DNA from: Vibrio taketomensis
Lineage (GTDB): Bacteria > Pseudomonadota > Gammaproteobacteria > Enterobacterales > Vibrionaceae
NCBI RefSeq assembly: GCF_009938165.1
Contig: NZ_AP019649.1
Span: 1,302,001 to 1,366,000 of the forward strand
DNA: 64,000 nt
Direction of reading: 5' to 3'
The notes under the pieces were generated by a model, which was not told the DNA's origin, ran no database searches, and saw only the letters and a list, made by a program, of their open reading frames with translations. A program made the position numbers and the translations under genes. This document shows positions 2,882-62,205 of the stretch, piece after piece. The stretch's first letter is position 1, and each line of letters opens with the position of its first letter.

Positions 2882-3377
2882 TTATTCACCAAAACTGATA
2901 CGGTTGTCAGCAATTGCATTAAAAATTTTCTCGGTGTCTAAGATTTGTGCCCAAGGCATCAGTTCAGATTCATTTTCAATCATGTACTGAGTCAACAATT
3001 CTTTGACAGTCGAACGAATTTGGTCACCGTTCCATGGTTTCGCCAGATAGAAATCTAGACTCGCATGGTTTATCGCTTCAACGGTATCTTCTAAACCGGC
3101 TTGACCAGTGAGTAACAATTTTTTCGCTTTTGCTGTCTGTTTATCATCACTTAATTCAATTGAAGCTGATACCCGTTTGCTCCGGCATGATATGGTCACA
3201 CAAAATTAGCGCTAGTTGGATTTCGTCTGCTTGGGCTTCTGCGATAATCTCTTTAGCTTCAGCAACCGATTCCGCCGCTTCGAGCATAAAATGCGCTTCA
3301 AAGCAGTCAAGATCTTGAATAACACTATCTAATACTTCTCTTTCGTCATCGACGCATAGGATGAGGTACTTGTTCAT
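2882..3377 (-). pseudogene. Response regulator RR1, frameshifted
   Basis: A receiver-only response regulator of about 165 residues with an acidic pocket (LCVDDE), phosphoacceptor D61 (LILCDHIMPEQTG), the LLLTGQ threonine strand and the AKPW lysine. The reading frame breaks at about 3156-3161: the first frame ends GISFN-stop and the rest resumes as IELSDDKQ. The REC-like domain of the adjacent kinase reads GAEFLIQL at this place, so one Leu codon is shortened and a 2-nt deletion is the simplest explanation. There is no output domain; the tail ILDTEKIFNAIADNRI resembles that of the kinase REC domain. It starts 3 bp after the kinase stop and forms an operon with it. Confidence 0.8.
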
Positions 3378-3380
3378 GGT

Positions 3381-5322
3381 TTATTCCTCGTTGAAATCTG
3401 GTTGTTGCTCAATCGGTAACCAAACCGACATCTTGGTATATTCGTTAACCTTTGAATCTACAGTAATAATGCCACCATGTTGATTAATTATCTGCTGGCA
3501 AACTGACAAACCGATACCTAGCCCAAAGTTTCCTTCCTTTTTAGTGGTGAAATTCAAATCAAAAACTTGTTGTTGTAGCTCGGGTGAAATACCGCATCCA
3601 TTATCTTGAACTTCTATTACGGCCCAACGCTTACCTTGTTTTATCGTTTGTTGGGTTCTTACCGTGAGTCTCCCTTGCGCTGGGAAGGCATCAATCGCGT
3701 TGGAGATGAGGTTTGTCCAAACTTGTTGTAACGCGATTGGCATGCATTTGATCTTGGGCAGATTTGCGTACTCTTTTTCAACACGATGCAGTTTGAGTTT
3801 GTTTTCGAAGATCACCAGCGTATCTTCAATACCTTCGTGAATATCTGCGTAGTGAAAGGTTTCATCATCTTGTCGAGCATAACCTTTCAGGCTTTTAACC
3901 ATGTCAGCAATACGTTGAGCGCATACGTTGATAGAGCGTAGTGTGGCTCCTGCTACGTGATAGCTTTCAAGTTCATCCAGCTGAGCATTGACTTCATCTG
4001 GATTGTATCGCGCGAGCTTCAACCAGTGCTCTTTTTCATGTAAGCCTAATTTGACCAGTTTTTTCGCAAGTCTACGATCGCCAATTTGTTGTTCTACTTG
4101 TTTGGTTTTTTGACGTTCATCTGCCGTTGAGTTGGGACGGGAGGAGAGGGCTCTCGTTAGAATGTCATTGTTCATTTCAGGCGGGCATTGTCCCTGACCA
4201 TTCACCAGTTGATGGATACTTTCAGTGAGGGTTTCTGTACCGCGTAATATTGCTGCGATTGGGTTATTAAGTTCGTGAGCGACGCCGGCGACGAGTTGGC
4301 CGAGCATTGCCATTTTTTCACTTTCAATTAATTGATGGTGAGCAAGCTCTAACGACTCTAGCGTTTTTTGTAGCTTGAGTTTGGTGTTGATATTGCGTTG
4401 CAAGCGACGGTTAAAGTGACGCAAAAGTAGGTTGGTAAAGAGTGGAAGCAATGCGGTATCAGAATACATGACTTTGCTAAATACGTCGCGGTCGATCTTT
4501 ATCACATCTGCGCTGGTCAGAGTTAATGCAGTGGAGAAGGAGGGCTCTCCAGTAACAAAGGACATACCACCGATGATATTACCCTTGGTATGGCGAACGA
4601 CCTCACGTTGCACGCCTTGGTCATCTTTTATATAGCGCAACTTCACCGGACATAATGAACCAGAGGAAGTTGTTGTCTTCGCCTTCGACTGTTAATAGGT
4701 GATCACTCGAGTAATGGCGTATCGCATGGGTTTCATCGCCTTTAGCAAAAAAGTCTTTTAGAGCGTTAATAACGCGCTCTGCCAATTCGCCGTCTGACAT
4801 TTTATGGTGGTCAGTGATAAAGCCAGCCTGATAGCTTTGCATCTTTTGATCAATGTGAGCGCGAAATAGTCGCTGCTGATCCAAGATAAGCCCGTAGGAA
4901 AGTAAATTCTCTCTGTCTTCTTCGATAACAAAATTGGTTAATTCATTAAAGGCGGTTTTATAAACCAGTTTTTCTTGCAGTGGCTTGGTTAAGCAGTGAT
5001 CTAAGCGCGTTTCATTCACGGTGTTTAAAATGGCTTGAATGTCTTGACCACAACTGATCAGCACTTTACGTGTTTTGTGCGTGAGTGGGGAATTGTCTAA
5101 TTGAATCAGGAATTCTGCGCCATTAAAGCTTTCATGGTGACTGGCTAATACCAGTGCGATGGTTTGATTTTTATCGTGGCAATACTGCAGTGTTTCGTAA
5201 CCATCTTCGATTGAATCGACACAATGTATATCAAACTTGGTCGCAAATACGCTGAGTTCTTTTCTAAGTTGCTCAATACTGACAGGGTTGCTGTCGAGGC
5301 ATATTAGGGCATATTGATTCAA
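3381..5322 (-). pseudogene. Hybrid sensor kinase HK1 (REC-like, cNMP-binding, HK), frameshifted
   Basis: Two overlapping frames together encode about 647 residues. First comes a pseudo-receiver (residues 1-130) whose phosphoacceptor is Ser61 (LVLASHHES), though the KP lysine remains. Next is a cyclic-nucleotide-binding-like domain (about 205-290), then a kinase core with the H-box QLVAGVAHELNNP, an unusual insertion of about 100 residues, the N-box WTNLISNAIDAF and the G-boxes DNGCGIS and NFGLGIGLS. The frame breaks at an A4 run at 4626-4629: one frame ends ALYKR-stop and the other continues KDDQGVQREV. This is either one extra A or two missing. The following gene RR1 is also broken. A paralogous intact pair lies at 58851-60648. 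Confidence 0.8.
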
Positions 5323-5534
5323 GCTATTTTTCCAATCTGTTCTCTTTCTTTGTCAAACAGGCTATCAATAAATGCCCTCTTGTGCTGCGAGCTAAGTTAT
5401 AGATATGTTGTATAATCAGTAAATTGAACAATACTCTGATTTATCTCAAGCTTTTTTGGTGTAGACTGGCTGAATTCACTGTTTCATTTCAGCTGCAAAT
5501 TAGCCAATGAATTTGAAATGATCGTTTTCAATAT

Positions 5535-6818
5535 ATGGATTACCTTAGAATGAGTTCTATGATGCAACTTAAAAAACTAGCTGCCATTGGTGGTGCGATA
5601 TCTTTAGCCCTTTGTTGGCCGCTTGCTGTTGGTCAAATTGGCCAAAGTGTTATTGAAGATGCTGTCCAAAACCTCAATTCGAATACGATTAAAAGTGAAA
5701 TTGTCAGCTATGATCGCGGTTACCTATCTTCGACGGTTGTTACGCGTTACACGGTCACTGACCCAGAATTGCTTTCGCAACTACAACTTGACGGTATTCC
5801 TGCTCAAATTGATGTAAAAAGCGATATTACGCATGGTTTGATCAGTTTAAGTGCGGATTCAGTGATGACGAATTGGCCTCAAATTCCATTGACAGCACAC
5901 ACAGTAACGCAACTAAACGGCAATACTGATTTCGAATTCAAGTTAGGCAATTGGCATCAAACGATCGACGGTGAAGGTGGTGCAACCATGCTAATCACTC
6001 CGTCTACATTGAAAGGGCACGCAACGGTGCTTGGCCAAGTGAGTTTTGAGCTAGATGTACCTTCAGTTGAAATGGATTTTAATACGGGTGAGAAACTGAT
6101 GATTGATAACCTTACCGGTAACGGTGACGGTAAAAAGGTTAACGGTTTCTGGATTGGCGATCAGGTACTTAAGATCAAACAGTTATCAGTGTTAGACCCA
6201 CAGCAAACCGCTCAATTTTCGATGAAAGATGCGGAGTATCAATACATCGCTAATCACGATGAGGCTACTCAGCGCGTTGCGAGTAATCATACTATTCGTA
6301 TTGGTGGAATTAGTGTTGAAGATGAAAGCTTAGACAAGGTTGAATTGAACTTTGCGTTTGGCGATGTCGATGCCGTATCTTTTGAGCAATTGGTAACGAG
6401 ATACCAAGATTCTCCGATGCTTACCGCGCAAGACTTACAAGCGATGATGCCATACCTAGATAGCCTGTTTGCGAAAGGTTTCTATATCTCAAGCGATAAG
6501 ATGGCGATAAATATCGGTGACGGTGAATTCACATCTAATTGGAAGTTAATTGTTCCTCAGGGAACGGATAACATTTCACAAAACCCAATGAAGCTAATGC
6601 CTGCACTTGAGGGACACTTTAATTCTTTTGTTTCTGATGATTTGGCTCAGCAATACCCATCAATCAAACAAGCGATGGATGAAGGCATGGTGATGGAGTT
6701 TGTTCAGCAGACAACGGGTGGCTATCAAGTAAAAGCAGAAATTAAAGAAGGCAATATTGTGTTCGAAGGTGGGCAAAAAGTACCACTTATGAGCCTGTTC
6801 CTACCTTTAATGATGTAG
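5535..6818 (+). CDS. YdgA-like DUF945 protein
   Basis: A 427-residue protein of the DUF945/YdgA family. It has an N-terminal signal anchor (about residues 10-33, MQLKKLAAIGGAISLALCWPLAVG), then a long beta-rich periplasmic region with the family-typical segments SEIVSYDRGYLSS and a conserved C-terminal GGYQVKAEIKEGNIVFEGG. E. coli YdgA is periplasmic and its function is unclear. The start is uncertain: ATG codons at 5535, 5550, 5559 and 5562 all precede the signal anchor and none has a strong ribosome binding site. Monocistronic with its own terminator. Confidence 0.82.
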   Translation: MDYLRMSSMMQLKKLAAIGGAISLALCWPLAVGQIGQSVIEDAVQNLNSNTIKSEIVSYDRGYLSSTVVTRYTVTDPELLSQLQLDGIPAQIDVKSDITHGLISLSADSVMTNWPQIPLTAHTVTQLNGNTDFEFKLGNWHQTIDGEGGATMLITPSTLKGHATVLGQVSFELDVPSVEMDFNTGEKLMIDNLTGNGDGKKVNGFWIGDQVLKIKQLSVLDPQQTAQFSMKDAEYQYIANHDEATQRVASNHTIRIGGISVEDESLDKVELNFAFGDVDAVSFEQLVTRYQDSPMLTAQDLQAMMPYLDSLFAKGFYISSDKMAINIGDGEFTSNWKLIVPQGTDNISQNPMKLMPALEGHFNSFVSDDLAQQYPSIKQAMDEGMVMEFVQQTTGGYQVKAEIKEGNIVFEGGQKVPLMSLFLPLMM

Positions 6819-6854
6819 CTTAGATTACTAGAATTAGTAAAATATCTTCTCCAA

Positions 6855-6890
6855 ACAAAGAGGTCTAAACACCTCTTTTGTTGCTTTTTA
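6855..6890 (+). terminator. Terminator after the YdgA-like gene
   Basis: Stem ACAAAGAGGT/ACCTCTTTTGT with a loop CTAAAC, followed by TTGCTTTTT. Confidence 0.8.
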
Positions 6891-6996
6891 TAGTGTGTAA
6901 AAAGTGGTATTAATGAAGCATCGACTCAAATCCTCTCGGTGATGCCCCAGATTTGAGTGTGCATTTTGAATTAAATCATGAGCAAGGAACGAAACA

Positions 6997-8079
6997 GTGG
7001 ACAACGTTTTTAACTTTAGTGCTGGTCCTGCGGCTTTACCGAAACCGGTAATGGAAAAAGCCCAGGCAGAATTATTGAACTGGCAAAATCTTGGCACATC
7101 GGTGATGGAAGTGAGTCACCGTGGTAAAGAATTTATTCAAGTCGCAGCCGAAGCGGAGCAAGATCTACGCGACTTGCTTCGAGTGCCAGATAACTACAAA
7201 GTGTTGTTTTGCCATGGTGGTGCGCGCGCACAATTCGCAGCGGTTCCAATGAACTTACTTGGAAGCAAATCAAAAGCGACATACATCGATGCAGGCTTTT
7301 GGGCAGAGAGCGCGATTGATGAAGCGCAAAAGTATTGTGAAGTCGATAAATTTGACGCAAAAGTTGCGTTGGATGGCAAGCTTGCTGTTAAGCCTGCGAC
7401 TGAATGGTCAATTGCCGATGACGCTGCTTACGTCCACTTTTGCCCGAATGAAACCATTGATGGCGTTGAGATTTTTGATTTGCCGCAAACGGACAAACCA
7501 ATCGTCGCGGATATGTCTTCAAACATTCTTTCACGCGAAATTGATGTATCAAAATACGGTGTTATTTACGCAGGCGCTCAAAAGAACATCGGTCCTTCAG
7601 GTATTTGTATCGTTATCGTACGTGATGACCTGTTAGATCTTGCTAGCGATATTCTGCCAAGTTTGTTGAACTACAAGATTTTGGCTGAGAAAGATTCTAT
7701 GTTCAATACGCCACCAACCTTTGCTTGGTACTTATCAGGCCTTGTGTTTAAGTGGTTAAAAGAGCAGGGTGGTGTAGCAGCGCTAGAGCAAATCAACCGC
7801 GAAAAAGCGGCATTGCTTTACAACTACATTGATTCTTCTGAGTTCTACCGTAATAACATTCATCCACAAAACCGTTCACGTATGAACGTACCGTTCCAAC
7901 TGGCAAAACCAGAGTTGGACGAGCTGTTCCTTGAGCAAGCGAAAGCTCGCGGGTTAGTTGCGTTGAAAGGTCACCGAGTGGTTGGTGGTATGCGTGCATC
8001 GATTTATAACGCAATGCCGCTTGAAGGTGTGCAAGCGCTTGTCGAGTTTATGCGAGAGTTTGAAGTTAGTAACGCATAA
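6997..8079 (+). CDS. serC: Phosphoserine aminotransferase
   Basis: The 360-residue PLP enzyme converts 3-phosphohydroxypyruvate and glutamate to phosphoserine in serine synthesis, and also acts in pyridoxine synthesis. It is full length with [10 protein letters not shown] at the N-terminus, HGGARAQF in the cofactor region, the PLP lysine K196 in [12 protein letters not shown], and a C-terminal [16 protein letters not shown] block. It starts with GTG preceded by AAGGAAC. It is monocistronic, between two terminators. Confidence 0.97.
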
Positions 8080-8103
8080 TGAATGTTGCAAATACCAAAA
8101 TTC

Positions 8104-8129
8104 AAAAGCCGGCTTAAGTCGGTTTTTTT
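8104..8129 (+). terminator. Terminator of serC
   Basis: Stem AAAAGCCG/CGGTTTTT (one G-T pair) followed by a T-run, 25 bp after serC. Confidence 0.82.
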
Positions 8130-8362
8130 ATGCAACAAACAACAGCGGCTAGAGTGATTTAGTTGAACTACACTTATTCTCAAGCACTTTGAGGTGACTT
8201 TAGTATATTCAACGACTGATTAACTTTGATGTTCATGGTGTTGTTAATGCGAAAAATTATTGTCGTAAAGATGCAATCGGTATTTGCGCAATTGGTGATT
8301 GCTCGTGGTTAACAATAGAGTACATTGAGACTAAGTTAGCAGTATCGCATATAGGAAAAATT

Positions 8363-8935: not shown

Positions 8936-8966
8936 GTGAGTTTAAAGGCCATATTGGTTATAGGCA

Positions 8967-8995
8967 AAAAGCCACCTGTTTAGCAGGTGGCTTTT
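8967..8995. terminator. Bidirectional terminator
   Basis: Perfect stem AAAAGCCACCTG/CAGGTGGCTTTT with loop TTTAG, between convergent genes ending at 8935 and 9042. Confidence 0.92.
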
Positions 8996-20051: not shown

Positions 20052-20904
20052 TTAGAAGTGTGAAAGCTTATCGTAGCGTGAATCTTTAAGCGCATCTTTA
20101 ACGCGACGTAGGTTTTCACGGAAACCAGTACCGCGGCGAAGCGTAAAGCCTGTTGCGAGAACGTCGATAACTGTCATTTGTACTACGCGACTTGCCATTG
20201 GCATGTACACGTCAGTGTCTTCCGGCACATCAAGCGCGATGGTGAGCGAACTTGCTTTATCCAGCGGCGAATCTTTAGCCGTAATTGAGATTACTGTTGC
20301 GCCATTTTCACGAGCAAGGTGTGCGATCTCTACTTGGCTCTTAGTACGGCCAGTGTGTGAAATTAGCACGATAACATCGTTATCAGAGCTGTTGATGCAG
20401 CTCATGCGTTGCATCACGATATCTTCAAAACAAGTGATAGGAATATTAAAACGAATAAACTTGTTTTGAGCATCTTTTGCAACTGCCGATGATGCACCTA
20501 AGCCAAAAAACGAAATGCGTTTGGCTTGAGTCAGTAGATCAACGGCACGATTGATTTGCATTGGGTCTAGGCTATTTTTAGCCACATCAAGGCAAGCCAT
20601 CGTTGATTCAAAGATTTTGTGGCTGTATGCGTCTGGGCCGTCGTCTTCTTCAACATTTCGGTTTACATATGGCGTACCGTTAGCAAGACTTTGAGCAAGA
20701 TGCAATTTAAAGTCCGGGAAACCCTTAGTGTCCAATCGACGACAAAAGCGGTTAACAGTAGGCTCACTGACATCAGCCATTTTTGCTAATGTCGCAATAC
20801 TAGAGTGAATTGCAGTTTGTGGCGAAGCCATGATCACTTCCGCGACCTTGCGCTCCGACTTACTAAAATTCTCTAGATTTTCTGTATTTTTCTAATGTAT
20901 TCAT
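20052..20904 (-). pseudogene. hexR: HexR (RpiR family), N-terminus frameshifted
   Basis: HexR represses or activates central carbon genes and senses 2-keto-3-deoxy-6-phosphogluconate through its SIS domain. The continuous frame starts only at GTG 20837 (VIMASPQTAIHSS) and contains most of the helix-turn-helix and the whole SIS domain. Upstream, ATG at 20902-20904 opens MNTLEK in another frame. Adding one A to each of two short A-runs (GAAAAATAC and AGAAAATC) restores MNTLEKIQKNLENFSKSERK, joined to VAEV, and a 284-residue protein of normal HexR length. So two 1-nt losses separate start and body. The protein is either a sequence artefact or lacks about 22 N-terminal residues. Confidence 0.85.
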
Positions 20905-21116
20905 AGTTTCCACAAGGGTATAGAGAACGGCTCGCTCACTGAGCTGTATGAATTCTTAATCATTCAGACTAAGTGCTCCACAAACAACCAATACCTTTAG
21001 TATGGTTGACCCAGTATAAACCTAACCTCTGGATTTATAGTAATTTTTGCACGGATCAATTGGTGAGAATATGACAGGCATCAAACAAAATTTTATGAAA
21101 ACTACAAAAATTTTAG

Positions 21117-24519: not shown

Positions 24520-25438
24520 TTAAATTCCGCTGGCTCTAATTAAATCCTGAATTTTGGTGTGGAATTCACTATCGCTTAAATTGGTGAGGTTGTACAGAAT
24601 ATCCGCACCAGTTACGTCGATTTCTACTTCATGTTCTTCTAGGTTTTCGTCTTGGCGACGGAACATAAGGATGTGGTTGGCGATACGAGCCACATCGAGA
24701 TAGGAGACATCAACGTCAAGTTGTTGACTATTTTCGTTGAGTGCTACGTCGATGAAATCTTTATCGAATCCCCATTTTTCTAGTACCAATCGGCTGGCTG
24801 CTGGACAAAGATTATTGAAAATACGTAACGCTAATTCGCTATCTAGATAGTTTCCACGTTCAAGGTAGAGATGGTATTCATGAACGATACAAAATAGACC
24901 AATGTCAGATAGCAGACCCGTAAGCAGGGCTTTGTCTGATAAAAGGTGCGCGTATTCTGGTGATTGAGTTTGGCGAAATTCCTTGGTGACCATCACCATG
25001 GTAGCGGCTAACTCTTTTGAGGTGTGGGCGCTGCGGCGAAGTACGGTATTACATTCTTTGGACAGGTTGACCGAGTTTTTTAATTGTTCAATGGCTTGTG
25101 CCGTTACAATATCACGGACTCTATTAATGCCAAGGCGTGAGACCGCGGTGATCACTTCAGTGCATTCAATATTACGACGATTAAAAATAACCGAATTGGC
25201 GATGCGAATGACCGCTGCGGTTAGCCCTGGATCTTCAACCAAACAATCAGCAACATCCATGACACTAGTAGAATCTATGGCACATAAGCGTTGAATTTTT
25301 GTGACGACTTCAGGAATGGGAGGAAGTGTGATTTTCCCTGATTCGATTGAGCTTTCTAAGTAGGAGGCGAATTCGGACTCAATACTTTTTTCAATTAAAG
25401 CGCGGTTTCTGGCAGCCAGTAAAAGATAGATGGGTCAT
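24520..25438 (-). pseudogene. HDOD domain signalling protein, N-terminus frameshifted
   Basis: The HDOD core reads LPPIPEVVTKIQRL, then DPGLTAAVIRIANSVIF and later GLLSDIGLF. HDOD proteins are output or adaptor modules linked to motility and cyclic-di-GMP signalling; no nuclease or cyclase residues are present. The first standard start in the main frame is at 25260, in the middle of the domain. The frame stays open upstream to about 25432 and encodes the missing LLAARNRALIEKSIESEF part, but has no start. ATG 25436-25438 opens MTHLSF in another frame. One T too many, or two bases missing, at the T-run about 25420-25425 would join them into about 305 residues. Confidence 0.72.
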
Positions 25439-26486: not shown

Positions 26487-26804
26487 ATGGAAACTGAGCA
26501 GCACAAAATTTCGCTTCCTTCGCTAATTCATCGAATCGGTCGAGACCAAGTCGACAGCATACGTGAAATGGCTGTTGAACACGGATGTATGTTAAAACGA
26601 ATAAGAAGGTCAAGAAATTGGCAGGTTGAAGGCAGCTATTTTAGTTTGCGAACACTGATTTCTGAATTGGCGAAAGGTGACTCGCTTAAATTCCAATATG
26701 TGATTAAGAAGCTGAACGAGGCAATAGCAAACATTGAACCACCACGCACGATCGAGCAACAGCTCGCTGATTTACTTCAAAAATCCAAACATCACTTTGA
26801 ATGA
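26487..26804 (+). CDS. Hypothetical protein, 105 aa
   Basis: A 105-residue, basic cytosolic protein with no signal or membrane segment. It starts at ATG with TAGGTGAGAG upstream. The middle has an Arg-rich stretch (LKRIRRSRNWQVEG) that may contact nucleic acid; the rest is predicted helical. I recognise no family. Confidence 0.65.
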   Translation: METEQHKISLPSLIHRIGRDQVDSIREMAVEHGCMLKRIRRSRNWQVEGSYFSLRTLISELAKGDSLKFQYVIKKLNEAIANIEPPRTIEQQLADLLQKSKHHFE

Positions 26805-26933
26805 GTTAGTTACTGAAACTGGATGTGAAATTTCACAAGCCCGCCAAGCCCGTTTTCATTACGAGTCATTGTGAAAGCGGCTTATTTCTTTATGTAGATG
26901 TAAAATTAGAAATATTTTATAACATAAAAGTTC

Positions 26934-40864: not shown

Positions 40865-41290
40865 TTATTTGCGTTTGCTCATAATCAGTTTTAAGGCGTG
40901 ATTGAGGCGCTTCATCTCTTCATCGCTGCCACGCAAATCCGGGTGATAGATTTTGCATAATTGTTTGTAGCGCTGCTTGATTCCTTCAACTGGGGGAAGG
41001 GCGTGTTTTTCATAGCCGAACATCGCGCAAGCAAGATCGAGTTCGGTAGCATGACTAGACGAGGTCTGTGATATATGGCTTGCAGACGCTTGTCGCAATT
41101 GTTGTGATAGTTGAGAGAGCAACTGCTGCTGTTTTTTGATCGCTTGTTCTTGTCGTGCAATATGCTGTTTTAACTGTTGATTTTCTAAGAAGGAAGCATT
41201 AACGGTGGCTGACAATGTCTGTTCGGTATCGGCTTCCGTGGTTGACTTAAGCATTTTGAGTTTGCGGCGGCGAGTTATTCTGTACGACAC
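40865..41290 (-). CDS. J-domain protein
   Basis: A 141-residue protein with a coiled-coil middle (about 35-75, Gln-rich) and a C-terminal J domain (about 90-138), with the HPD motif in QLCKIYHPDLRG. It would stimulate an Hsp70 partner. The frame starts at GTG 41290, but stays open upstream to about 41360 and would encode a hydrophobic N-terminus (RIAVIAIALVSYR) without any ATG, GTG or TTG. A membrane anchor and a displaced or non-canonical start are therefore possible. Confidence 0.72.
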   Translation of the reverse strand: MSYRITRRRKLKMLKSTTEADTEQTLSATVNASFLENQQLKQHIARQEQAIKKQQQLLSQLSQQLRQASASHISQTSSSHATELDLACAMFGYEKHALPPVEGIKQRYKQLCKIYHPDLRGSDEEMKRLNHALKLIMSKRK

Positions 41291-41378
41291 AAGAGCGATA
41301 GCTATAACCGCAATCCGGAGCTGACAGGGACAATCAATTCTTGATATGAAAGTGATGAAAATAGATTTTTAGGATGGT

Positions 41379-41885
41379 TTAAATGGTCAAATTCAGCCAA
41401 CGTTTGACTCGTTGCTGGTTAAATTCATCTTGTAAAATACTGCTATAAGCGGCTTCTGCTGCTGGATTTGTCTCTGCAGCCATTTGAAACCAAAGTTTTG
41501 CCAGCATACTTGCATTAAGCGCATCTGGTTGTGATTGATAAATCATGCCAAGTTGATACTGCGCGTTATCATTGCCATTGAGGGCTAATTTGGTGAGCCA
41601 ATAGATGCCACGTTCGAAATGATTTTTGTTTTTTTGATTCGAAAGGTAATACTCAACCAAATCGAGTTGCGCCTGTTGATAGCGGTTATTGGCCGCTTGC
41701 TCTAACCAATAAAGGGCATCTTGGGAGGATTGTGTCACCCCTTTACCGTTTTGGTAAGCTTGGGATAGTTGGTACTGGGCTCGTGGGTTATTGAGTTCCG
41801 CTTGCTCGAGCAATTCATTAAATGCAGAGTTTTGGGCGTGGGCAATAGATGAAACGAGAATGAGTAGGGTGAGAAACAATTTCAT
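41379..41885 (-). CDS. Sel1-repeat periplasmic protein
   Basis: A 168-residue protein with a signal peptide (MKLFLTLLILVSSIAHA). The mature part contains three to four Sel1/TPR-like repeats (AQYQLSQAYQNGKGVTQSSQDALYWLEQAA, then ..ERGIYWLTKLALNGNDNAQYQLGMIYQ). These usually mediate protein interactions. The start at 41885 begins the signal peptide directly; six extra upstream residues are possible. Confidence 0.82.
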   Translation of the reverse strand: MKLFLTLLILVSSIAHAQNSAFNELLEQAELNNPRAQYQLSQAYQNGKGVTQSSQDALYWLEQAANNRYQQAQLDLVEYYLSNQKNKNHFERGIYWLTKLALNGNDNAQYQLGMIYQSQPDALNASMLAKLWFQMAAETNPAAEAAYSSILQDEFNQQRVKRWLNLTI

Positions 41886-41950
41886 CTTAAACCAGAAATC
41901 CATTTGGTTGCATTTAAATAGATTTCATATTTTACACTTAAGCACAATAA

Positions 41951-50467: not shown

Positions 50468-51203
50468 TTAGTGCTTTAGATAATCCGCAAAAGCTTGAGT
50501 TTGTGGATTAGTAAATATCTCGTTGGTGCCATGCTCCACGATATGACCTTTCTCTAAATAAAGGACGTGTGAGGCAATTTTTTTGGCGAAATCGACTTCA
50601 TGTGTCACCACCACTTGAGTGATACCGGTCGCGCTCAGTTCTTTGATGATTTCGACCACTTGAGTTGTAATTTCTGGGTCGAGAGCCGCTGTTGGTTCAT
50701 CAAACAGCAATACTTCAGGTTTCATCATCAACGCACGAGCAATCGCAACACGTTGTTGCTGACCACCAGAGAGTTGTAGTGGCCAAGTATCGGCTTTGTC
50801 AGCAAGTTGCAATGTTGTAAGTATTTCTAAAGCCTGATTTTTTGCGAGTGTTTTATCCATGCCTGCAACTTTAACAGGGGCTTCGATGAGGTTTTGCATC
50901 ACCGTCATATGGGGCCACAGGTTATATTGCTGAAAGTATAACCCGACGAAGTTCCAATTCTTGCTTTTCGGCAATCGATTGAGAGAAGTCAAATTGATGT
51001 TGTGCGATAGAAAGCTGTCCGTTATCGGCGCTTTCAAGTAGGTTCAATACACGCAGTAAAGAGCTTTTTCCCGCACCGCTCGGGCCGAGTAAAACAAGCG
51101 TCTCGCCGTTGTTGCACTCAAAGCTAACATCGTGCAGAACTTGGGTTGAACCATAGGATTTATTGATCTGTTTAACTTGAATACTCATGCTCTGAAACTG
51201 CAT
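50468..51203 (-). pseudogene. artP: Arginine ABC transporter ATPase ArtP, frameshifted
   Basis: The ABC ATPase is split into two frames. The first has Walker A (GPSGAGKSS) and ends [12 protein letters not shown]. The second, 50468-51037, begins in the overlap and holds [14 protein letters not shown] (Q loop), the signature [15 protein letters not shown], Walker B LLFDEP and the H-loop VTHE. The junction at 50943-50949 lacks two residues between ELR and VG. Restoring 8 nt gives 242 residues from ATG 51188, the E. coli ArtP length. As written, no active ATPase is made. ATG 51203 or 51188 is the start. Confidence 0.85.
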
Positions 51204-51460: not shown

Positions 51461-52188
51461 TCAAGCGGCTGCTTGTGCAAATTGAGCGAGAAAGCCTTCT
51501 TTGCGTTCATTGAAGCGATTGACCAAGTCATCGATATCCGCTTGATTGTAGGGTTTCAAGCCGCTTGCTACCATTCGTTTGATACCTTTGCCGACTACTT
51601 CACCTTGCTCGATAAAGTCAAAGTTAAGTGTTACTAAGCCGCGTTTACCGTCTACATCAAACGTTGCACCCGAAAATTCGACTTCAGGAGCGGTCAAATC
51701 TAAGCGACTAAATTCTACTTCCATGCTCTCATAAATGACTAATGGGCGTTGGCAGTTGATCATCATCTGCTTCTCTTCCATCAGCGGTACCATGATGTGC
51801 GGAAAATTCATACCAGAGAACTGAACGTAGTTTGTTACAACATGTTCAATGAATTTCGCGTCATGATTAATACTGCCTTCGCGATGCATTTGCAGATATT
51901 CTTTGCCATTCGCATCAATAACGGCGGCTTGCTTGGTGCATTTATGCTCGATATGCAATTCTACGCCATCATTCACCATACCAGAGAAGTCGAAACGCAT
52001 TTTTTGGCTGATGCCTTCTTTGCTAAGAAGCACTGAAAACAGTAGATCGCCTGGAACACAGAAACGTTTACTATCTTCGTCGTGAATAGGGTTGAAATCG
52101 CAGCAACTTTTTTCGCAAAGTGGCTTGCTTGAAGACGAGTAAACTGAAACTGATTATCTTTTGAAGTGAAGTAGGGTGTTAAAAACAT
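51461..52188 (-). pseudogene. DUF3581 / MaoC-like hotdog protein, frameshifted
   Basis: The intact product would be 242 residues. The N-terminal frame starts at ATG 52188 (MFLTPYFTSKDNQFQF..FAKKVA) and breaks at about 52099-52103. The continuing frame reads DFNPIHDEDSKRFCVPGDLLFSVLLSKEGISQKM. One G missing in GCTGGCGAT is the simplest change. The GDFNPIH stretch is the catalytic motif of MaoC-type (R)-hydratases, so this family looks like a hotdog hydratase-like protein. A FadR-like operator overlaps its promoter. Confidence 0.78.
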
Positions 52189-52366: not shown

Positions 52367-53107
52367 ATGTTTGGCAAATTGAAAGCGTCACTTGGGATTG
52401 GGGCGGCAAAAGTGGATACCGTCTTGAACACGAACGCTGTGATGCAAAGCGAAAGCATTCACGGTACCGTCCATATCTACGGTGGTGATGTTGCTCAACA
52501 AGTTGATGCAATTAACCTCAAATTATGCACTGAAGTGAAAGTAGAAACGGAAGATAGCACCAGTTATCAGAGTGTTATGATCGGTCAGTTACAAGCAGTG
52601 CAACCATTTATGATTGAAGTGGGCGAACATAAGCAAGTTCCTTTCACTATCAAACTAGCCGATGAAGCACCGATTACGGCATTAAATGCCTATAAGAATC
52701 AAAGCCATGTTTGGATTGAAACGACGTTAGATATTGATTTTGCACTTGACCCAAAAGATCGAGACTATGTTGAGGTTCATCCTTTACCTGTGGTAGCTAA
52801 AGTTATTGCAGCGATTCAATCTGCCGGGTTTGAGATGGTCAAAGCCGATGTCGAGAAGGGCTTTCTGCGCGGACAAAACTTCAGTTCAACGTCTGGATTT
52901 TATCAGGAAATCGAGTTTCGTAATCGTGGCTTTATGAACCGTAAAGAGATAGAACTCTCTTTTGTGCTAGAGGGAAATGCGGTGCATTGTTTGGCTGAAG
53001 TTGATAGAGCGCTAGGTAGAGGTGACCAATATACCTCATTTACTTTGTCGCGACATGCATCGGACATGGAAGTAAGCAATGCGGTATCACGAGTTCTGTC
53101 AATCTAG
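52367..53107 (+). CDS. Spo0M-like (arrestin-fold) protein
   Basis: A 246-residue sporulation-control-protein Spo0M family member. N-terminus MFGKLKASLGIGAAKVDTVL, then the arrestin-like beta sandwich with VMQSESIHGTVHIYGGDVAQQVDAINL. In non-sporulating bacteria the role is unknown. The start has an AGGAAG site. Its stop codon overlaps the stop of the convergent DUF3187 gene by 4 nt. Confidence 0.9.
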   Translation: MFGKLKASLGIGAAKVDTVLNTNAVMQSESIHGTVHIYGGDVAQQVDAINLKLCTEVKVETEDSTSYQSVMIGQLQAVQPFMIEVGEHKQVPFTIKLADEAPITALNAYKNQSHVWIETTLDIDFALDPKDRDYVEVHPLPVVAKVIAAIQSAGFEMVKADVEKGFLRGQNFSSTSGFYQEIEFRNRGFMNRKEIELSFVLEGNAVHCLAEVDRALGRGDQYTSFTLSRHASDMEVSNAVSRVLSI

Positions 53108-54085
53108 TCTCGAGAGCCAAAGCGGTACCGGTAGGCAAGCGTAAAAGCGATATCGGTACTGTTATCGGCATTAATGGTGTTTTCAATAACAGAAAACTCT
53201 ATGGCCGAGCTTGTCATTTGATAGCGATAACCCAACGTCACTTCGGTCGCTATTTCGGAAAATTCATCGTCATTTGACGAGACCCCTTCATAAACGCCCA
53301 GTTGTAAGATCACATAATGGCGAGTAAACCATTGATATCGGTAGCTACTACCGACAAACCAACCGCTCTTTTTATACGGCATATTTTCGAAGTTGGTGGG
53401 AGCGTCACGGAACGTTTGACTAACAGTGGCATCGAAGCCATGTTTTCCTGAAAGAAAACCATAATTAAGTTGAAGGCTTTGCTCCCAATCACTGTGAGCA
53501 AAGAATCCGCTGCCGAAATCCGCGTAGTAGAGACTGGCACCAAATGATAATCCATGGTGTTGATTTTGGTAGAGCTGATATTGAAGGTAGCTATACAAAC
53601 CTTGGCTTAACACTTTGTTGTTAAAGTCTTTTTCTTCGATTCCATATTGGGGCATGTCGATCACATAACGATCATTATCCACTTCATCACGCCCATTTTG
53701 ATCGATGGAAAACCAGTCATGAAATTCATGGTTAACGAATCGAGAGACCATTATCGGCAGCGTAATTAATACGGTAGCCAAAATCGACTTGCCATACGGG
53801 ATTGAGCTGCCACTTGGCGCCGATTTGGAACTGATTTTGGTAGTAATCGAGTTCATAAGCGTAGTTTTTGGCCCACACACTGGCGGCAGTGAGCGCACCG
53901 TATAGTTCAATGTCATCTTTTGCCATTGAAATCCCAGAGCGTACTTGGGGGGCTAATCCATTAGTAATAAATGGTGATTGAGCGTAACTTTGCAGCGGAC
54001 CAAAATCTACAGGAGTAACGGCCGCAAATGCGCTGGCTTGGACAAATAGGCAACAACTAATTGCGATAGATTGTGTTATACGCAT
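53104..54085 (-). pseudogene. DUF3187 outer-membrane protein, frameshifted
   Basis: A barrel protein of about 327 residues with signal peptide (MRITQSIAISCCLFVQASAFA) and a C-terminal strand FTLAYRYRFGSRD. The frame breaks at about 53742-53746: one frame ends YAADNGLSIR-stop, and the other continues RFVNHEFHDWFSIDQNGRDEV. Two missing bases (for example GA in CTCGATCGA) would join them as DNGLDRFV. As written, the barrel is truncated after about 117 residues. Confidence 0.78.
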
Positions 54086-56016: not shown

Positions 56017-57188
56017 TTAGTAAATGATATTGATTTTTTGTGCCGCGAAGATCGCGTCTTCAATTGCTAGGTCGAGCGCTTCACGTTGAGTCATCACCAC
56101 GCCCAAACGACGTCGACCATCAATATCGGGTTTACCAAATAGGCGCACTTGAGTTTTGGGAGCCGCGAGAGCCTCGTTCAACCCTTCAAAACGAAGGTTG
56201 TTGGACGTGCCTTGTCCTAAAATAACCGCTGATGCAGCAGGGCCATATTGCTGGATCGCTCCAATCGGCATACCTGTAAATGCGCGCACATGCAGCGCAA
56301 ATTCAGACATATCTTGTGATGCCAAAGTGACTAATCCAGTATCATGTGGGCGAGGGGATACCTCATTGAAAATGACAGTGTCACCTTTTACAAATAGCTC
56401 AACACCAAAAATTCCGTAACCACCCAGTGCATTGACCACTTTTTCTGCCGCATGTTGCGCAGCTTTAAGTGCTTTATCTGACATAACCTGAGGCTGCCAA
56501 GATTCGCGATAATCACCATCTTCTTGACGATGCCCGATTGGTGCGCAGAAGTGAACCCCATCAACGGCTCTGACAGTCAGCTGAGTGATTTCATAATCGA
56601 AATCGATGAAGCCTTCAACAATGACACGTCCGGCCCCAGTTCGCCCGCCTTCTTGAGCGTAGTTCCACGCTTTTTCGACATCTTCAACACTACGAATGAC
56701 ACTCTGACCTTTGCCTGAGGAGCTCATTACGGGTTTGCACACACAAGGCATGCCGACAGCTTCGATTGCTGCGGTAAAATCTTGGTAGTTATCTGCGAAT
56801 CGATAAGGGGAGGTCGTCAGATTCAACTCTTCAGCGGCAAGACGACGAATACCCTCACGATTCATCGTCAACTTGGTCGCGTTGGCGGTAGGGACGACAT
56901 TGAATCCCTGACTTTCTAACTCTACCAATTTGTCGGTAGCGATTGCTTCAATTTCAGGCACGATGAAAGCTGGTTTTTCGGTTTTAATGATGTTTTCCAG
57001 CGCTTCACCATCGAGCATATCTAATACATAACTGCGGTGAGCAACCTGCATAGCAGGCGCATTGGCATAGCGATCACAAGCGATGACTTCAAGTCCTAGA
57101 CGTTGGCATTCAATGGCCACTTCTTTACCTAGTTCACCGATCCCAAAAGTACGCGAGTAGAATTGTCACAAGTTGCGGTACCGAACAT
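56017..57188 (-). pseudogene. purT: Formate-dependent GAR transformylase PurT, N-terminus frameshifted
   Basis: PurT uses formate and ATP to formylate glycinamide ribonucleotide. The main frame from GTG 57120 ([18 protein letters not shown]) holds the ATP-grasp core ([20 protein letters not shown]). The true start ATG 57186-57188 reads [19 protein letters not shown] then stop. The body continues [10 protein letters not shown], so one base (or four) is missing within about 57135-57152. The lost part is the conserved LLGSGELGKE loop that binds phosphate. Restored length is about 391 residues, as in E. coli (392). A PurR box lies upstream. Confidence 0.87.
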
Positions 57189-57249
57189 AGATAACCTTCC
57201 GTTTCAAGAGTGGGAGAAATTGGCAGAATGATACTGGAACCAAACAAAA

Positions 57250-57265
57250 AAGCAAACGTTTGCGC
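57250..57265 (-). promoter_or_regulatory. PurR operator of purT
   Basis: AAGCAAACGTTTGCGC, 14/16 to ACGCAAACGTTTGCGT with a perfect GCAAACGTTTGC core, about 62 bp upstream of the purT start. Confidence 0.88.
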
Positions 57266-57428
57266 ATGTTGTGGTGTTAACCAAAAGGAGCAAAGTTCGA
57301 ACTGACCCACATTTTTGTAACAGCTTGTTTCAATACTTAAATTTCATTGATCTAACACCAAATTTGTTAATCAAAACAGGAGGATGATACACAGAGTTAA
57401 ATTAAATCTCAGGAAGAGTAGTAGCGTG

Positions 57429-58847
57429 ATGCGTTCTTTTATTAAATACGTCATACCAGTGTTGATACCACTGTTAATTTTATTAATGCCTTTGAGTGCC
57501 TTTCCGTTCGAAGGCATGACCATTCTTCAACAGCGAGTTATCGCGATATTCTTATTAGCAGCACTTTGCTGGGTGTTAGAACCTATTCCTATCTATGCCA
57601 CTTCCGTGGTGATTATTGTTTTAGAACTACTCATGCTTTCTGACAAAGGCATCATTTGGTTTCGTAGTAGCCAAGGTGAAGCGCATTTTGGAGAACTGCT
57701 TAGATACAACGATATTATGGCGACCTTTGCGAGCCCAATTATCATGCTATTTTTGGGTGGTTTTTTCCTGGCGATGGCGGCGACGAAATACCGTTTGGAT
57801 GTGAACTTAGCGCGTGTGTTGCTAAAGCCTTTTGGTAATCAGCCTAAATATGTGATGTTAGGTTTAATGCTGATTACTGCTGTATTTTCAATGTTCATGT
57901 CCAATACCGCGACAACAGCAATGATGCTGGCGATTCTTACCCCAGTAATTGCGGTGTTTGCACCTAATGATCCAGGCCGCGTTGCCTTTGCGCTGTGCAT
58001 TCCTGTGGCAGCGAACATTGGTGGTATTGGTACACCAATCGGTACGCCTCCTAACGCTATCGCACTCAAATACCTAGTGGGTGAAAACTATATTTCATTC
58101 GGTGAATGGATGGCATTTGGCGTTCCTTTTGTTGTGGTCATGATGGCGTTTGCATGGTTTGTAATCAATGCGCTATACACAGCAGAACAAAAGAACATTG
58201 AGTTGACTATTCAAGGTAAATTCCTCAAAACACCAAAAGCGATGGTGGTGTATGTCACGTTCGGTTTAACAGTTCTACTTTGGTTGATGGGGTCATCACA
58301 TGGTATGAACTCCTATACCGTTGCGTTAATTCCTGTCGCGATCTTCTCTCTGACTGGCATTATCAACAAAGAAGACCTTAAGAAAATTTCTTGGGATGTA
58401 TTGTGGTTAGTGTCTGGTGGTATTGCTCTTGGTTTAGCTCTGGATAAAACCGGGTTAGCAAGCCTTGTTGTTCATAGCATACCGTTTGATGAATATTCTC
58501 CTTACGTAGTTTTATTCGGTGCAGCGGGTCTATGTTTGTTGATGGCAAACTTTATGTCACACACGGCAACAGCCAACTTATTGATGCCGATTATGGCAGC
58601 GCTTGGCGCATCGATGACTTCACTGGCTCCGCTGGGTGGAGAAGTGACGCTTATTCTCGTGGTAACGTTCGCAGCGTCGTTGGGTATGTCTTTACCAATC
58701 AGTACACCACCAAACGCACTGGCGCATGCAACGGGTAATGTACAAAGTAATCAAATGGCGAAAGTTGGCGTGATTATTGGTGTAGTTGGTGTTGCGATGA
58801 GCTTTTTCATGGTGTGGTTACTGCACACGGTTGGACACATTGGATAA
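57429..58847 (+). CDS. DASS family sodium/dicarboxylate symporter
   Basis: A polytopic transporter of about 472 residues of the SLC13/DASS family. Two sodium-site motifs are visible: MSNTATTAMM and SMSLPISTPPNALAHAT, plus GGIGTPIGTPPNAIAL. About eleven hydrophobic segments. The substrate is probably a di- or tricarboxylate or sulfate. The frame extends to 57384, but MRSFIKYVIP at 57429 gives a natural start. It lies 3 bp before a kinase gene. Confidence 0.88.
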   Translation: MRSFIKYVIPVLIPLLILLMPLSAFPFEGMTILQQRVIAIFLLAALCWVLEPIPIYATSVVIIVLELLMLSDKGIIWFRSSQGEAHFGELLRYNDIMATFASPIIMLFLGGFFLAMAATKYRLDVNLARVLLKPFGNQPKYVMLGLMLITAVFSMFMSNTATTAMMLAILTPVIAVFAPNDPGRVAFALCIPVAANIGGIGTPIGTPPNAIALKYLVGENYISFGEWMAFGVPFVVVMMAFAWFVINALYTAEQKNIELTIQGKFLKTPKAMVVYVTFGLTVLLWLMGSSHGMNSYTVALIPVAIFSLTGIINKEDLKKISWDVLWLVSGGIALGLALDKTGLASLVVHSIPFDEYSPYVVLFGAAGLCLLMANFMSHTATANLLMPIMAALGASMTSLAPLGGEVTLILVVTFAASLGMSLPISTPPNALAHATGNVQSNQMAKVGVIIGVVGVAMSFFMVWLLHTVGHIG

Positions 58848-58850
58848 ACA

Positions 58851-60173
58851 ATGAATCAACCAGATTTATCCAGTTTAATCAGCCGCTACTTTAGTCAACC
58901 GGACCGGACTCTTGAAGTGGAGGCCGGTGCCACCTTGTTAGAGCAGCATGAGCGTAATGAGCGGCTTTATTATGTGTTGGACGGTGAGTTAGAGGGGTAT
59001 GTCTCAGATCGCGGTGAGGAAAGGGCAAAAGTTTTTTCAGCGGGCGCAGGCGCGTTTATTGGAGTACACAGTTTCTTCTCTGGAATTTGGCTTGCCTCCT
59101 CGACAGTGATTGCTAAAACCAGAGCGACACTGGCGTGGATCGACCGTAATATTCCGGCAGTCGACGAAGAGACATTTGGTCCATTAACTGCTCAGTTTAC
59201 GCCCGTGATTGTCAATGAGTTGTCTCGCCGTCAATGGCGCGCTACACAAGAAGCATTAGCCAAAGAAAAGGCGTTACGTAAGTTGGCTATGGCCGAGCAG
59301 ATGACCACGCTTGGTCAGTTAGCGGCAGGTATTGCACATGAGCTCAATAATGCGATTGGTGTGGTAAGTAGTAAATCTGAACGTTTAGAAGGCGTTATTG
59401 TTACTCTCTTGGAAGAATTGCATCCGGAAGCAAGCCAGTTCTTCGACCATGGCTTATTGTATGGGCAAAAATGTACATCCAGTGAGGCACGAGTCAGAGC
59501 AAGAGAGTACGAAAAGCGTTATGGTTTAGATAAAGCAACCGCAAAAGACTTAGCGCGAGCACTACCGTGTGAGATGCTTTCAAAACATTGGCTGACAAAC
59601 CCTCAACAAGCGGTCAAGTATTGGAAAATGGGGCGCGATTTACATGATCTTAGAATGGCTTCTAAGCATACAGTAGGCATTGTTCGCTCGGTAAAACAAC
59701 TGGGGCGCGCTGATATAGATGCGCAAGAGTTAGTTGATATTAACGAAAGCATCAACCGTGCAGTGTCATTACTACATAGTGAATTAAGACGAGTATCGGT
59801 GCGCATTAATCCCGGAGAGCTGCCAAGATTTCAAGGCTCTCAAACAGAACTTGTTCAGGTTTGGGTGAACATTATTAAGAATGCGTGTGATGCAATGCAA
59901 GCCACACCTTCGCCTTTAATCGAAATTAAGACAAGGAAAAACCGTAATCGATTATTAGTGACGATTACAAACAATGGGCCAGAAATAGAGGCCAATACCA
60001 GAAGACGAATATTTGACCCCAACTTTACGACTAAAAAAGGTGGGTTGTCTTTTGGCCTAGGATTAGGTCTATCTATCGCTCGTAGAATAGTGTCCGGTTA
60101 TGGAGGCACTATCGCGGTTAAAAGCGGTGAACAACAGACCATATTTAGAATTAAATTACCTATCGAGGATTAA
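58851..60173 (+). CDS. Sensor kinase HK2 with cNMP-binding domain
   Basis: A 440-residue soluble kinase with no membrane segment. Residues about 15-125 form a cyclic-nucleotide-binding-like domain (VLDGELEGYVSDRG). H163 lies in the H-box LGQLAAGIAHELNNAIG. An insertion of about 105 residues with ARVRAREYEKRYGLDKATAKDLARALP follows. The HATPase has WVNIIKNACDAM and FGLGLGLSIARRI. It is paralogous to the broken HK1 at 3381-5322. It is in an operon with the DASS transporter and RR2. Confidence 0.9.
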   Translation: MNQPDLSSLISRYFSQPDRTLEVEAGATLLEQHERNERLYYVLDGELEGYVSDRGEERAKVFSAGAGAFIGVHSFFSGIWLASSTVIAKTRATLAWIDRNIPAVDEETFGPLTAQFTPVIVNELSRRQWRATQEALAKEKALRKLAMAEQMTTLGQLAAGIAHELNNAIGVVSSKSERLEGVIVTLLEELHPEASQFFDHGLLYGQKCTSSEARVRAREYEKRYGLDKATAKDLARALPCEMLSKHWLTNPQQAVKYWKMGRDLHDLRMASKHTVGIVRSVKQLGRADIDAQELVDINESINRAVSLLHSELRRVSVRINPGELPRFQGSQTELVQVWVNIIKNACDAMQATPSPLIEIKTRKNRNRLLVTITNNGPEIEANTRRRIFDPNFTTKKGGLSFGLGLGLSIARRIVSGYGGTIAVKSGEQQTIFRIKLPIED

Positions 60174-60174
60174 C

Positions 60175-60648
60175 ATGGACAAGCTAAATGTAATTTGTGT
60201 CGACGACCAAAGAGAGGTTCTGAGCGCGGTATTGCACGATCTTGAACCGTTAGCAGAATGGTTAAATATCGAGGACTGTGAATCTGCTGATGAGGTGTTA
60301 GCGCTTATGGATGAGCTGGACTCGGAAGGAGAGTACATCGCAGTTGTTGTCTCTGACCACGTTATGCCTGCCAAAACGGGCGTAGAACTGCTAACGGATA
60401 TTTGTGCTGATCGTCGTTTCACTCACACCAAAAAAGTACTGCTGACTGGGCAGGCAACTCATACTGATACGATTCAAGCGATCAACACTGCAGGCATTAA
60501 TCAGTATTTTGAAAAGCCTTGGCAATCTGATGTGTTAATTCAAGCTATCACCCGTTTAGCGACTGAGTTTATTTTTGATTCAGGGTTGGATTACAGTCAA
60601 TATCATGCGCACCTTGATCAGCAAGTAGTATTAGAAAGATTGCGCTAA
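60175..60648 (+). CDS. Response regulator RR2 (REC only)
   Basis: A 157-residue receiver domain with acidic pocket CVDDQ, phosphoacceptor D61 (VVVSDHVMPAKTG), LLTGQ and the EKPW lysine. A tail of about 30 residues has no known output domain. It starts 1 bp after the HK2 stop with GAGG upstream. It is the intact paralogue of RR1 at 2882-3377. Confidence 0.92.
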   Translation: MDKLNVICVDDQREVLSAVLHDLEPLAEWLNIEDCESADEVLALMDELDSEGEYIAVVVSDHVMPAKTGVELLTDICADRRFTHTKKVLLTGQATHTDTIQAINTAGINQYFEKPWQSDVLIQAITRLATEFIFDSGLDYSQYHAHLDQQVVLERLR

Positions 60649-60683
60649 GCGATTAGAGAGTCTCTTTTAAAATACGATTTAGT

Positions 60684-60717
60684 AAACCGAGATGGCTGAC
60701 ACTGTCTCGGTTTTTTT
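60684..60717 (+). terminator. Terminator of the transporter-HK2-RR2 operon
   Basis: Stem AAACCGAGA/TCTCGGTTT followed by TTTTTT. The rest of 60649-60964 holds no gene. Confidence 0.88.
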
Positions 60718-60964
60718 ATCTAGAACAAATTGTTGCCAGTACTATCGTCGTATCCACAAACCATCCAATCTTGCTAAACAGCGTGCCTCGAGATGGGGTG
60801 TTACTATTCCTCATCGAGATGCTATTTAGTGATTGTCACTGATTTTCAAAAGTTGTGATCCAAATGAGCACATATTTTAAGCGTTCGCATGCGTACCTAA
60901 AGAAATGTGTCCGTAACAATAATATACTTGCGTCGTTTTCAAGGCGTAAAAAGAGTTTGTGGTC

Positions 60965-62205
60965 ATGATGCAGTACGATCCAAAAAATGTAGTTAAAATT
61001 TCTATTGATACACTGACTCTCGGTATGTTTGTGATTGCGATTGAACATAGTAAGCGTGTCAATCTTACTAATGCAGGGCGCGTTGCTAGCGAGAAATCCA
61101 TCCAGCAGTTAAAACAAAGCGGTGTAAAATACGCATGGGTAGACAAATCGCTTTCAGTCCAAGGCTGCGTATTTAAAGCGGTTGATTCATCAGAAACTAA
61201 TGGATTTAGTGACGATACGAAATCATCGCCAGCAAAACAAAGCCCCAACCACCTAGCGCACGCCAAGCAATCAAAACAAGCCGTTTTGCTCAGCAAAAAC
61301 AAGCGTCGAGGATTATTCGTGAAGCCAAAGGCCTTGCTCAAAAACTGATAAATCAAACCTTTGAGGGTAAGGTTATTCATGTCGGAGAGATCGAAAATTG
61401 GGCAGATGATGTTATTGATTCCGTATTAGTGGACTCTGATGCGTTGCAATGTGTTTCCGCGCTGCGCAATAAAGATAAATACTTATTGGAGCATTCAGTC
61501 AATGTGGCGTGTTTGCTCGTCAGTTTTGGTAAACACTTAGGCTTGCCAAAAGCCACTTTAAAGCACTTGGCAATTGGCGGCATTATTCACGACGTTGGTA
61601 AAATCAAAGTTGATGACAAGGTTCTGCATAAGCCTGCGCGTTTGACGCCAGAAGAGTTCGAACATATGAAATTGCATCAGGTTTACGCCAAGCAAATCAT
61701 CACGAATGTAAAAGGGTTAAGTGATGTTTCACGCGATGTTTGCTTGATGCACCATGAAAAACTCGACGGCTCAGGATACCCGATGGGGCTGACGGCGGAA
61801 GAGATGCCAATGCATGGTCGTATGAGTGGTATTGTTGACATTTATGACGCGTTAACCGCCGATCGCTGCTATAAAAAAGGAATGAGTTCAGCCGAAGCCT
61901 TTAAGGTGTTATTGAGCCTGACCCCAAACCATCTAGATAAAGATTTGGTTTATAAATTTATCAACTGCATTGGCGTCTATCCTGTTGGTTCGATCGTCGA
62001 ACTCAATGATGGGCGCGTAGGTATAGTTTGGACATCCAACCCTGATGAGCCTCTAAAACCTGAAGTGAAGTGTTTTTACTCAAGAAAATACAAGCGATAT
62101 ATCGAGGTTAATTACGTAGATTTGAAACATAGCCAATGTAAGATTGAAAAGGCAATTGCGCCTCATAATTTGGAAGTGGATGCGATGCCATTTTTTGATC
62201 TTTAA
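60965..62205 (+). pseudogene. HD-GYP c-di-GMP phosphodiesterase, frameshifted
   Basis: A DUF3391-type N-terminal domain (VVKISIDTLTLGMFVIAIEHSKRV) is joined to an HD-GYP domain (IIHDVGKIKVDD, HMKLHQ, HHEKLDGSGYP). These degrade cyclic di-GMP. The frame breaks at an A5 run (61295-61299). The first frame ends KPKALLKN-stop, and the correct continuation is QASRIIREAKGLAQKLINQTFEGKVIHVG. One missing A would restore about 413 residues. All HD-GYP catalytic motifs lie after the break. Confidence 0.85.

What the first reader, a model, noticed from the sequence alone, without database searches (positions are those of the whole stretch)
2882..62205. Nine conserved genes each split by one or two tiny indels
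RR1, HK1, hexR, the HDOD gene, artP, DUF3581, DUF3187, purT and the HD-GYP gene all show a single abrupt frame change with strong family sequence on both sides. The simplest repairs are mostly deletions: 1, 1+1, 2 and 8 nt. No other decay is seen in these genes, while long neighbours (1060, 1008, 785, 762 codons) are intact. Four of the nine are two-component, HDOD or HD-GYP signalling genes, which make up only about a tenth of the coding length here. Either the sequence has indel errors, or this strain has many very young lesions concentrated in regulation.
Basis: partly seen in the sequence, partly recalled or inferred. Interest (0 to 1): 0.75.

Follow-up and report, generated by a model that had tools for sequence, protein, structure and literature searches.

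The report
Sequencing indel errors splitting Vibrio genes
Nine genes in this stretch of a Vibrio genome look broken, but so do genes a cell is not expected to live without elsewhere in the same genome, so the breaks are very probably sequencing errors rather than biology.

Summary
In detail: all nine genes change reading frame at or close to the stated places when compared with intact relatives, and two more genes in the window probably do too. The cause is very probably uncorrected indel errors in the assembly, not young mutations. (1) In two sampled blocks of chromosome 1, 39 frame changes were found in 544 genes, against 1 in 486 comparisons among four relatives; a third block of 72 genes had none. 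(2) They are small, deletion-biased indels; the stop-only places that passed the filter lie in an IS transposase or in upstream ORF extensions. (3) They ignore essentiality: murB, birA, rseP and bamA are split, and whole-genome searches find murB and bamA only in pieces. With one filter for all, essential genes have 2 changes, 2.16 expected. (4) Genes without a break match a Poisson expectation. (5) Breaks favour genes rich in A/T runs. One point stays open: two-component and c-di-GMP genes carry about three times their share (8 of 39 events, p about 0.01, partly post hoc). Reads are needed to settle each junction.

The parts
2882..3377 (-). RR1, receiver-domain response regulator, frame change near 3160
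   Evidence: receiver domain split over two frames; Response_reg in the intact relative; no Pfam match for the 105-aa piece alone
3381..5325 (-). HK1, histidine kinase with cNMP-binding domain, frame change near 4628
20052..20913 (-). hexR (RpiR family), frame change near 20885, about 10 residues from the start
24520..25438 (-). HDOD gene, two frame changes between 25407 and 25424
50468..51203 (-). artP (ABC ATPase), frame change at 50935-50947
51461..52188 (-). DUF3581 gene, frame change near 52099
   Evidence: also with V. fluminensis and LaRot3 orthologues
53104..54085 (-). DUF3187 gene, frame change at 53724-53747
56017..57188 (-). purT, frame change near 57138
60959..62205 (+). HD-GYP gene (DUF3391 + HD), frame change within 61222-61303
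26487..26856 (+). RRF_GI-family gene, probable frame change near 26782, not in the finding
   Evidence: not passed by the strict filter
40865..41903 (-). Sel1-repeat gene, probable frame change near 41400 (low identity on one side), not in the finding
   Evidence: not passed by the strict filter

Best explanation
The frame changes are consensus errors of the genome assembly: small, mostly one- or two-base losses left behind when the genome was assembled, probably from long reads without adequate correction (platform inferred, not shown). In the cell the nine genes are most likely intact. Shown: occurrence in other chromosome blocks, deletion bias, A/T-run preference, hits in single-copy essential genes, Poisson spread over genes. 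Inferred: sequencing platform, and that each individual junction in the window is an error.
For: Rate: 39 frame changes (in 37 of 544 genes, 179,145 aligned residues) in two sampled own blocks against 1 in 486 relative-to-relative comparisons (180,788 residues; the same genes compared more than once), p about 3e-11. Essential genes: of 136 E. coli proteins recalled as essential, 95 were found in the held own DNA, 4 with a frame change under a looser filter (murB, birA, rseP, bamA) and glmM with one near its start. With the strict filter for all genes, 43 essential genes (11,076 residues) carry 2 changes, 2.16 expected from 573 others (37 per 190,069 residues), p=1.0. Whole-genome family searches find murB only as two adjacent pieces, bamA over cut-off only as two adjacent pieces (three weaker matches below cut-off), and one biotin-ligase match starting at model position 39 of 235. 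Of the 4 stop-only places that passed the filter 2 lie in an IS110 transposase and 2 upstream of the gene start (fructokinase, purT); 0 nonsense beside 39 frame changes has p=0.002 if 15% were expected. Of 22 events with one simple alignment gap, 21 are losses of one or two bases and 1 a gain. AAAA/TTTT lies within 12 nt of 16 of 31 single events, 6.9 expected; run density predicts breakage, p=0.004. Genes without event: 273 observed, 273.3 expected; 234, 233.8.
Against: No reads, no second assembly of the strain and no platform record could be seen. 11 of 15 single one-base losses are not in runs of four or more, a weaker homopolymer association than reported for nanopore R9.4. 17 of 39 events have several alignment gaps and were not sized. 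Density varies: 12 per 88,912 residues in the origin block, 27 per 90,233 in the terminus block (p=0.024), 0 in 72 genes and 22,000 residues elsewhere. Signalling genes are over-hit about 3.4-fold. Five families searched genome-wide are open (rplB, mutS, ftsZ, dnaE, infB). One cluster, in cardiolipin synthase, holds a stop together with two frame changes, and before filtering one search listed 23 stops, many near alignment ends. The control comparisons cover other genes than most of the test set.
Confidence: 0.93

Rival explanations
1. Real, very young lesions in a strain with relaxed selection on regulation (for example laboratory passage or a host-restricted life).
For: Signalling genes carry 8 of 39 events on 5.8% of residues; identity is not clearly lower in broken genes (0.887 against 0.897; 0.849 against 0.838).
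Against: murB and bamA are found only in pieces; essential genes are hit as often as others (2 against 2.16 expected); no nonsense change in an ordinary gene passed the filter beside 39 frame changes.
Confidence: 0.03
2. Mixture: mostly errors, plus a few real lesions in two-component or c-di-GMP genes.
For: Signalling excess survives a rotation test (p=0.010) and adjustment for A/T runs (p=0.008); in separate held DNA 2 of 17 signalling-domain loci are split, both EAL.
Against: Partly post hoc; 7 genes only; no excess in the origin block (1 of 12, p=0.28); domain models seeded partly from orthologues of broken genes; one of the genes is hit twice; losses of one or two bases as elsewhere.
Confidence: 0.06
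3. Mismatch-repair mutator accumulating run-length indels.
For: Excess near A/T runs.
Against: mutS is open and full length (885 aa); essential genes are not spared; 11 of 15 one-base losses lie outside runs of four or more. mutL and mutH were not tested.
Confidence: 0.01
4. The genes are read through by programmed frameshifting.
For: Protein similarity continues on both sides of the changes.
Against: No common motif stood out beyond A/T-run words among k-mers of 3 to 5; both shift directions occur; relatives keep one frame.
Confidence: 0.005

Closest known systems
Gene-fragmenting indel errors in long-read bacterial assemblies (Kastor, PMC12007338; abstract and section 'Profile of Kastor detected errors' read)
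   Same: Indels dominate, false deletions outnumber insertions, A/T runs over-represented, many genes appear pseudogenised.
   Different: There deletions are highly associated with homopolymers; here 4 of 15 single one-base losses lie in runs of four or more. Fewer genes are hit here (37 of 544; their example had 23.3% pseudogenes before correction).
Systematic nanopore consensus errors (Homopolish, PMC8011154; passages read)
   Same: Uncorrected indels shift frames and inflate pseudogene counts.
   Different: Platform of this genome is unknown.
Genuine recent bacterial pseudogenes (recalled knowledge)
   Same: Single frame changes in otherwise conserved genes.
   Different: Essential genes are hit here and nonsense changes in ordinary genes did not pass the filter.

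Membership tests
Assembly indel errors | Many more frame changes than in relatives processed the same way | tested here: met
   39 per 179,145 residues against 1 per 180,788; but 0 per 22,000 in a third own block
Assembly indel errors | Blind to gene function, including single-copy essential genes | tested here: met
   murB, birA, rseP, bamA; same-filter test 2 against 2.16 expected, p=1.0. Against: signalling excess
Assembly indel errors | Deletion bias | tested here: met
   21 of 22 single-gap events are losses; 17 of 39 events not sized
Assembly indel errors | Concentrated in homopolymers | tested here: inconclusive
   AAAA/TTTT 16 against 6.9 expected of 31, but 11 of 15 one-base losses outside runs of four or more
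Assembly indel errors | Reads disagree with the consensus | not testable with these tools
   no reads available
Genuine young pseudogenes | Nonsense changes beside frame changes | tested here: not met
   4 stop-only places passed the filter, 2 in an IS110 transposase and 2 upstream of the gene start, beside 39 frame changes
Genuine young pseudogenes | Essential single-copy genes spared | tested here: not met
Genuine lesions concentrated in regulation | Excess in signalling genes over share of coding length | tested here: met
   8 of 39 events on 5.8% of residues, p=0.002; outside the window 6 of 34, p=0.007; origin block alone 1 of 12, p=0.28; rotation p=0.010; partly post hoc
Mismatch-repair mutator | Loss of mutS | tested here: not met
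   open frame of 885 aa
Mismatch-repair mutator | Loss of mutL or mutH | not tested

The most novel reading that the evidence does not exclude
Beneath an error background, this Vibrio strain carries real, selected losses in c-di-GMP phosphodiesterase and two-component genes: four of the five EAL loci in the held DNA lie in interrupted genes (CsrD-like near C1:370250, one near C1:1186500, one near C1:2447630, one on C2), and so are the window's HD-GYP, HDOD, HK1 and RR1 genes. Such losses would push the cell towards high c-di-GMP and a sessile state.
Probability: 0.06. Interest if true: 0.45.

Novelty: not a real feature. Interest (0 to 1): 0.08.

Why it matters
If the rates of the two blocks (0.135-0.30 per 1000 codons) held genome-wide, there would be roughly 170-375 frame changes (my extrapolation; the third block, with none, lowers it), including those in bamA and murB. 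Left uncorrected they would mislead studies of regulation or gene loss in this Vibrio clade. A genome rated 99.97% complete can still carry such errors.

Tried and rejected
Rejected: restriction of the breaks to the window (found in other blocks of chromosome 1); a GATC methylation motif at the sites (3 observed, 2.7 expected); lower conservation of broken genes (identity 0.849 against 0.838, and 0.887 against 0.897); local clustering as in a bad patch (dispersion p=0.20 and 0.63). ORF-length statistics by region were too noisy to use. One search used mechanical ORFs of E. coli and its non-essential class was swamped by shadow ORFs; it was replaced with annotated coordinates. One search used a looser filter (34 frame-change clusters and 4 stop-only in own; 12 rows in controls, several of them near N-termini or in short ORFs); one search replaced it. 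One frame-change row that I judge to lie in an rRNA region (C1:312666) was dropped from the count of 39; still used it in its expected value, corrected. One search stopped half-way on a formatting error; the rest was rerun. One search compared essential genes (looser filter) with the origin block (strict filter); one search repeats it with one filter. A first signalling test used seeds made of orthologues of broken genes and was replaced, whose seeds still come partly from them. A 100 kb relative block meant as a replicate had no frame change in 72 genes, so it could not test signalling. With a V. sinaloensis locus one search printed a stop-only row inside the intact 44734-47760 gene, which I take for a shadow ORF. 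A repeat search of a low-coding C2 stretch found nothing. A search for papers naming Vibrio with such errors (8 of 37 listed, titles and abstract starts seen) gave no report on this genome among those listed.

Full report
What was checked. The window is C1:1302001-1366000 of a 4,305,214-base genome in two contigs, 99.97% complete. A protein of the window matches Vibrio species, best V. fluminensis and V. rhodolitus at 86%, and the closest of 227 genus genomes searched (own included) are about 77% identical at a long gene. G151 is inferred to be V. rhodolitus from its contig length. Its 460 kb contig covers the window and its surroundings, so its intact ORFs were used as yardsticks.

The nine breaks are real features of the printed sequence. 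A frame-aware alignment shows a frame change in each of the nine genes at or within about a dozen bases of the stated junctions, except the HD-GYP gene where a variable linker leaves an 80-base range. Five of nine pass a strict filter; the other four do not. Orthologues in V. fluminensis, V. intestinalis and V. sp. LaRot3 show, without that filter, the same places for DUF3187, purT and HD-GYP, and for DUF3581 where an orthologue was found. With the filter, 3 of 27 loci showed a frame change. Two more genes in the window, of the RRF_GI family and with Sel1 repeats, probably have one too.

They are not special to the window. With one filter (20 residues at 60% identity on both sides; third codon positions carrying at least half the differences), 259 genes of C1:1142001-1586000 against G151 gave 27 frame changes and 4 stop-only places, and 285 genes, 279 of them in C1:1-400000, against G132 gave 12 after dropping one that I judge to lie in an rRNA region. 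The same filter on twelve relative-to-relative comparisons (486 gene comparisons, 180,788 residues) gave one frame change and one stop-only place, in the same query ORF. A third own block, 72 genes and 22,000 residues, gave none. Chromosome 2 was not tested against relatives.

They do not spare essential genes. Of 136 E. coli proteins that I recall as essential, 95 have an orthologue in 1.444 Mb of held chromosome-1 DNA. Four have a frame change under a looser filter (15 residues at 35% identity): murB, birA, rseP and bamA; glmM has one close to its start. Among 58 other E. coli proteins found, recG has one and trmO a less certain pair. murB, birA and recG were seen again with the Vibrio relative G132 and the strict filter. 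Whole-genome family searches show murB only as two adjacent pieces, bamA over cut-off only as two adjacent pieces and one biotin-ligase match that starts at model position 39. Other families searched genome-wide are open: rplB, mutS, ftsZ, dnaE, infB. With the strict filter for all genes, 43 essential genes carry 2 changes where the rate of the other 573 predicts 2.16. A cell with no working BamA or MurB would not be expected to grow (established knowledge), so these breaks are unlikely to be real, and the others have the same form.

Form of the breaks. Of 39 events 22 reduce to one alignment gap: 21 losses of one or two bases and one gain; the other 17 were not sized. Four of 15 one-base losses lie in runs of four or more, which hold about 5% of bases. 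A/T tetramers lie near 16 of 31 single events against 6.9 expected; GATC is not enriched. Density of A/T runs in a gene predicts breakage (p=0.004), as does low GC (p=0.0025). Of the four stop-only places two lie in an IS110 transposase and two upstream of the gene start: fructokinase, where the family model starts at residue 25 and the stop is at 23, and purT, where two relatives' 391-residue proteins start downstream of it. One search, before filtering, listed 23 stops, many near alignment ends or next to frame changes. The number of genes without any event matches a Poisson model in both blocks (273 against 273.3; 234 against 233.8). This resembles the profile described for uncorrected long-read assemblies, where false deletions dominate and A/T runs are over-represented (PMC12007338, section read; PMC8011154, passages), though the run association here is weaker. 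Which platform was used is not known to me.

What remains open. With domain models iterated over the held proteins, 22 of 544 genes are signalling genes and carry 8 of 39 events on 5.8% of residues (p=0.002; outside the window 6 of 34, p=0.007; terminus block 7 of 27, p=0.008; origin block 1 of 12, p=0.28). A test that rotates events along the genome gives p=0.010, and the excess stays after adjusting for A/T runs (rate ratio 3.4, p=0.008). In other held own DNA, 2 of 17 signalling-domain loci are split, both EAL domains. The hypothesis came from the window itself, the seeds came partly from orthologues of broken genes, and the gene number is small. I treat it as unexplained, with a small chance that a few losses are real.

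Verdict. The finding is very probably an artefact of sequence quality. Reads at the junctions would settle it gene by gene.

Noticed in passing
L069:11516-12514 (G000:C1:1293516-1294514), upstream of the window: An IS110-family transposase copy with in-frame stops and frame changes relative to a 91% identical copy in the relative; may be a truly decayed element.
   Followed up: partly
L092:6159-8077 (G000:C1:1168159-1170077): Cardiolipin synthase and a neighbouring sodium-dependent transporter carry several frame changes and stops within 2 kb, a dense patch.
   Followed up: partly
L180:7005-7754 (G000:C1:2447005-2447754) and L110:7573-8183 (C2): Two further EAL-domain genes split inside the domain; with the CsrD-like gene and the one near C1:1186500, four of five EAL loci in the held DNA lie in interrupted genes.
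   Followed up: partly
L108 (G000:C2:700001-720000): Very low coding fraction (0.56) and short ORFs (mean 133 aa); no direct repeats of 40 bases or more found, so an integron cassette array is not shown.
   Followed up: partly
window 3381-5325: The kinase pairs a cyclic-nucleotide-binding domain with a histidine kinase ATPase domain and sits next to a lone receiver protein.
   Followed up: no
G000:C1:1-400000 against 1142001-1586000: Frame-change density is about twice as high in the terminus block as in the origin block (27 against 12 events, p=0.024), as lower read depth near the terminus would give.
   Followed up: partly
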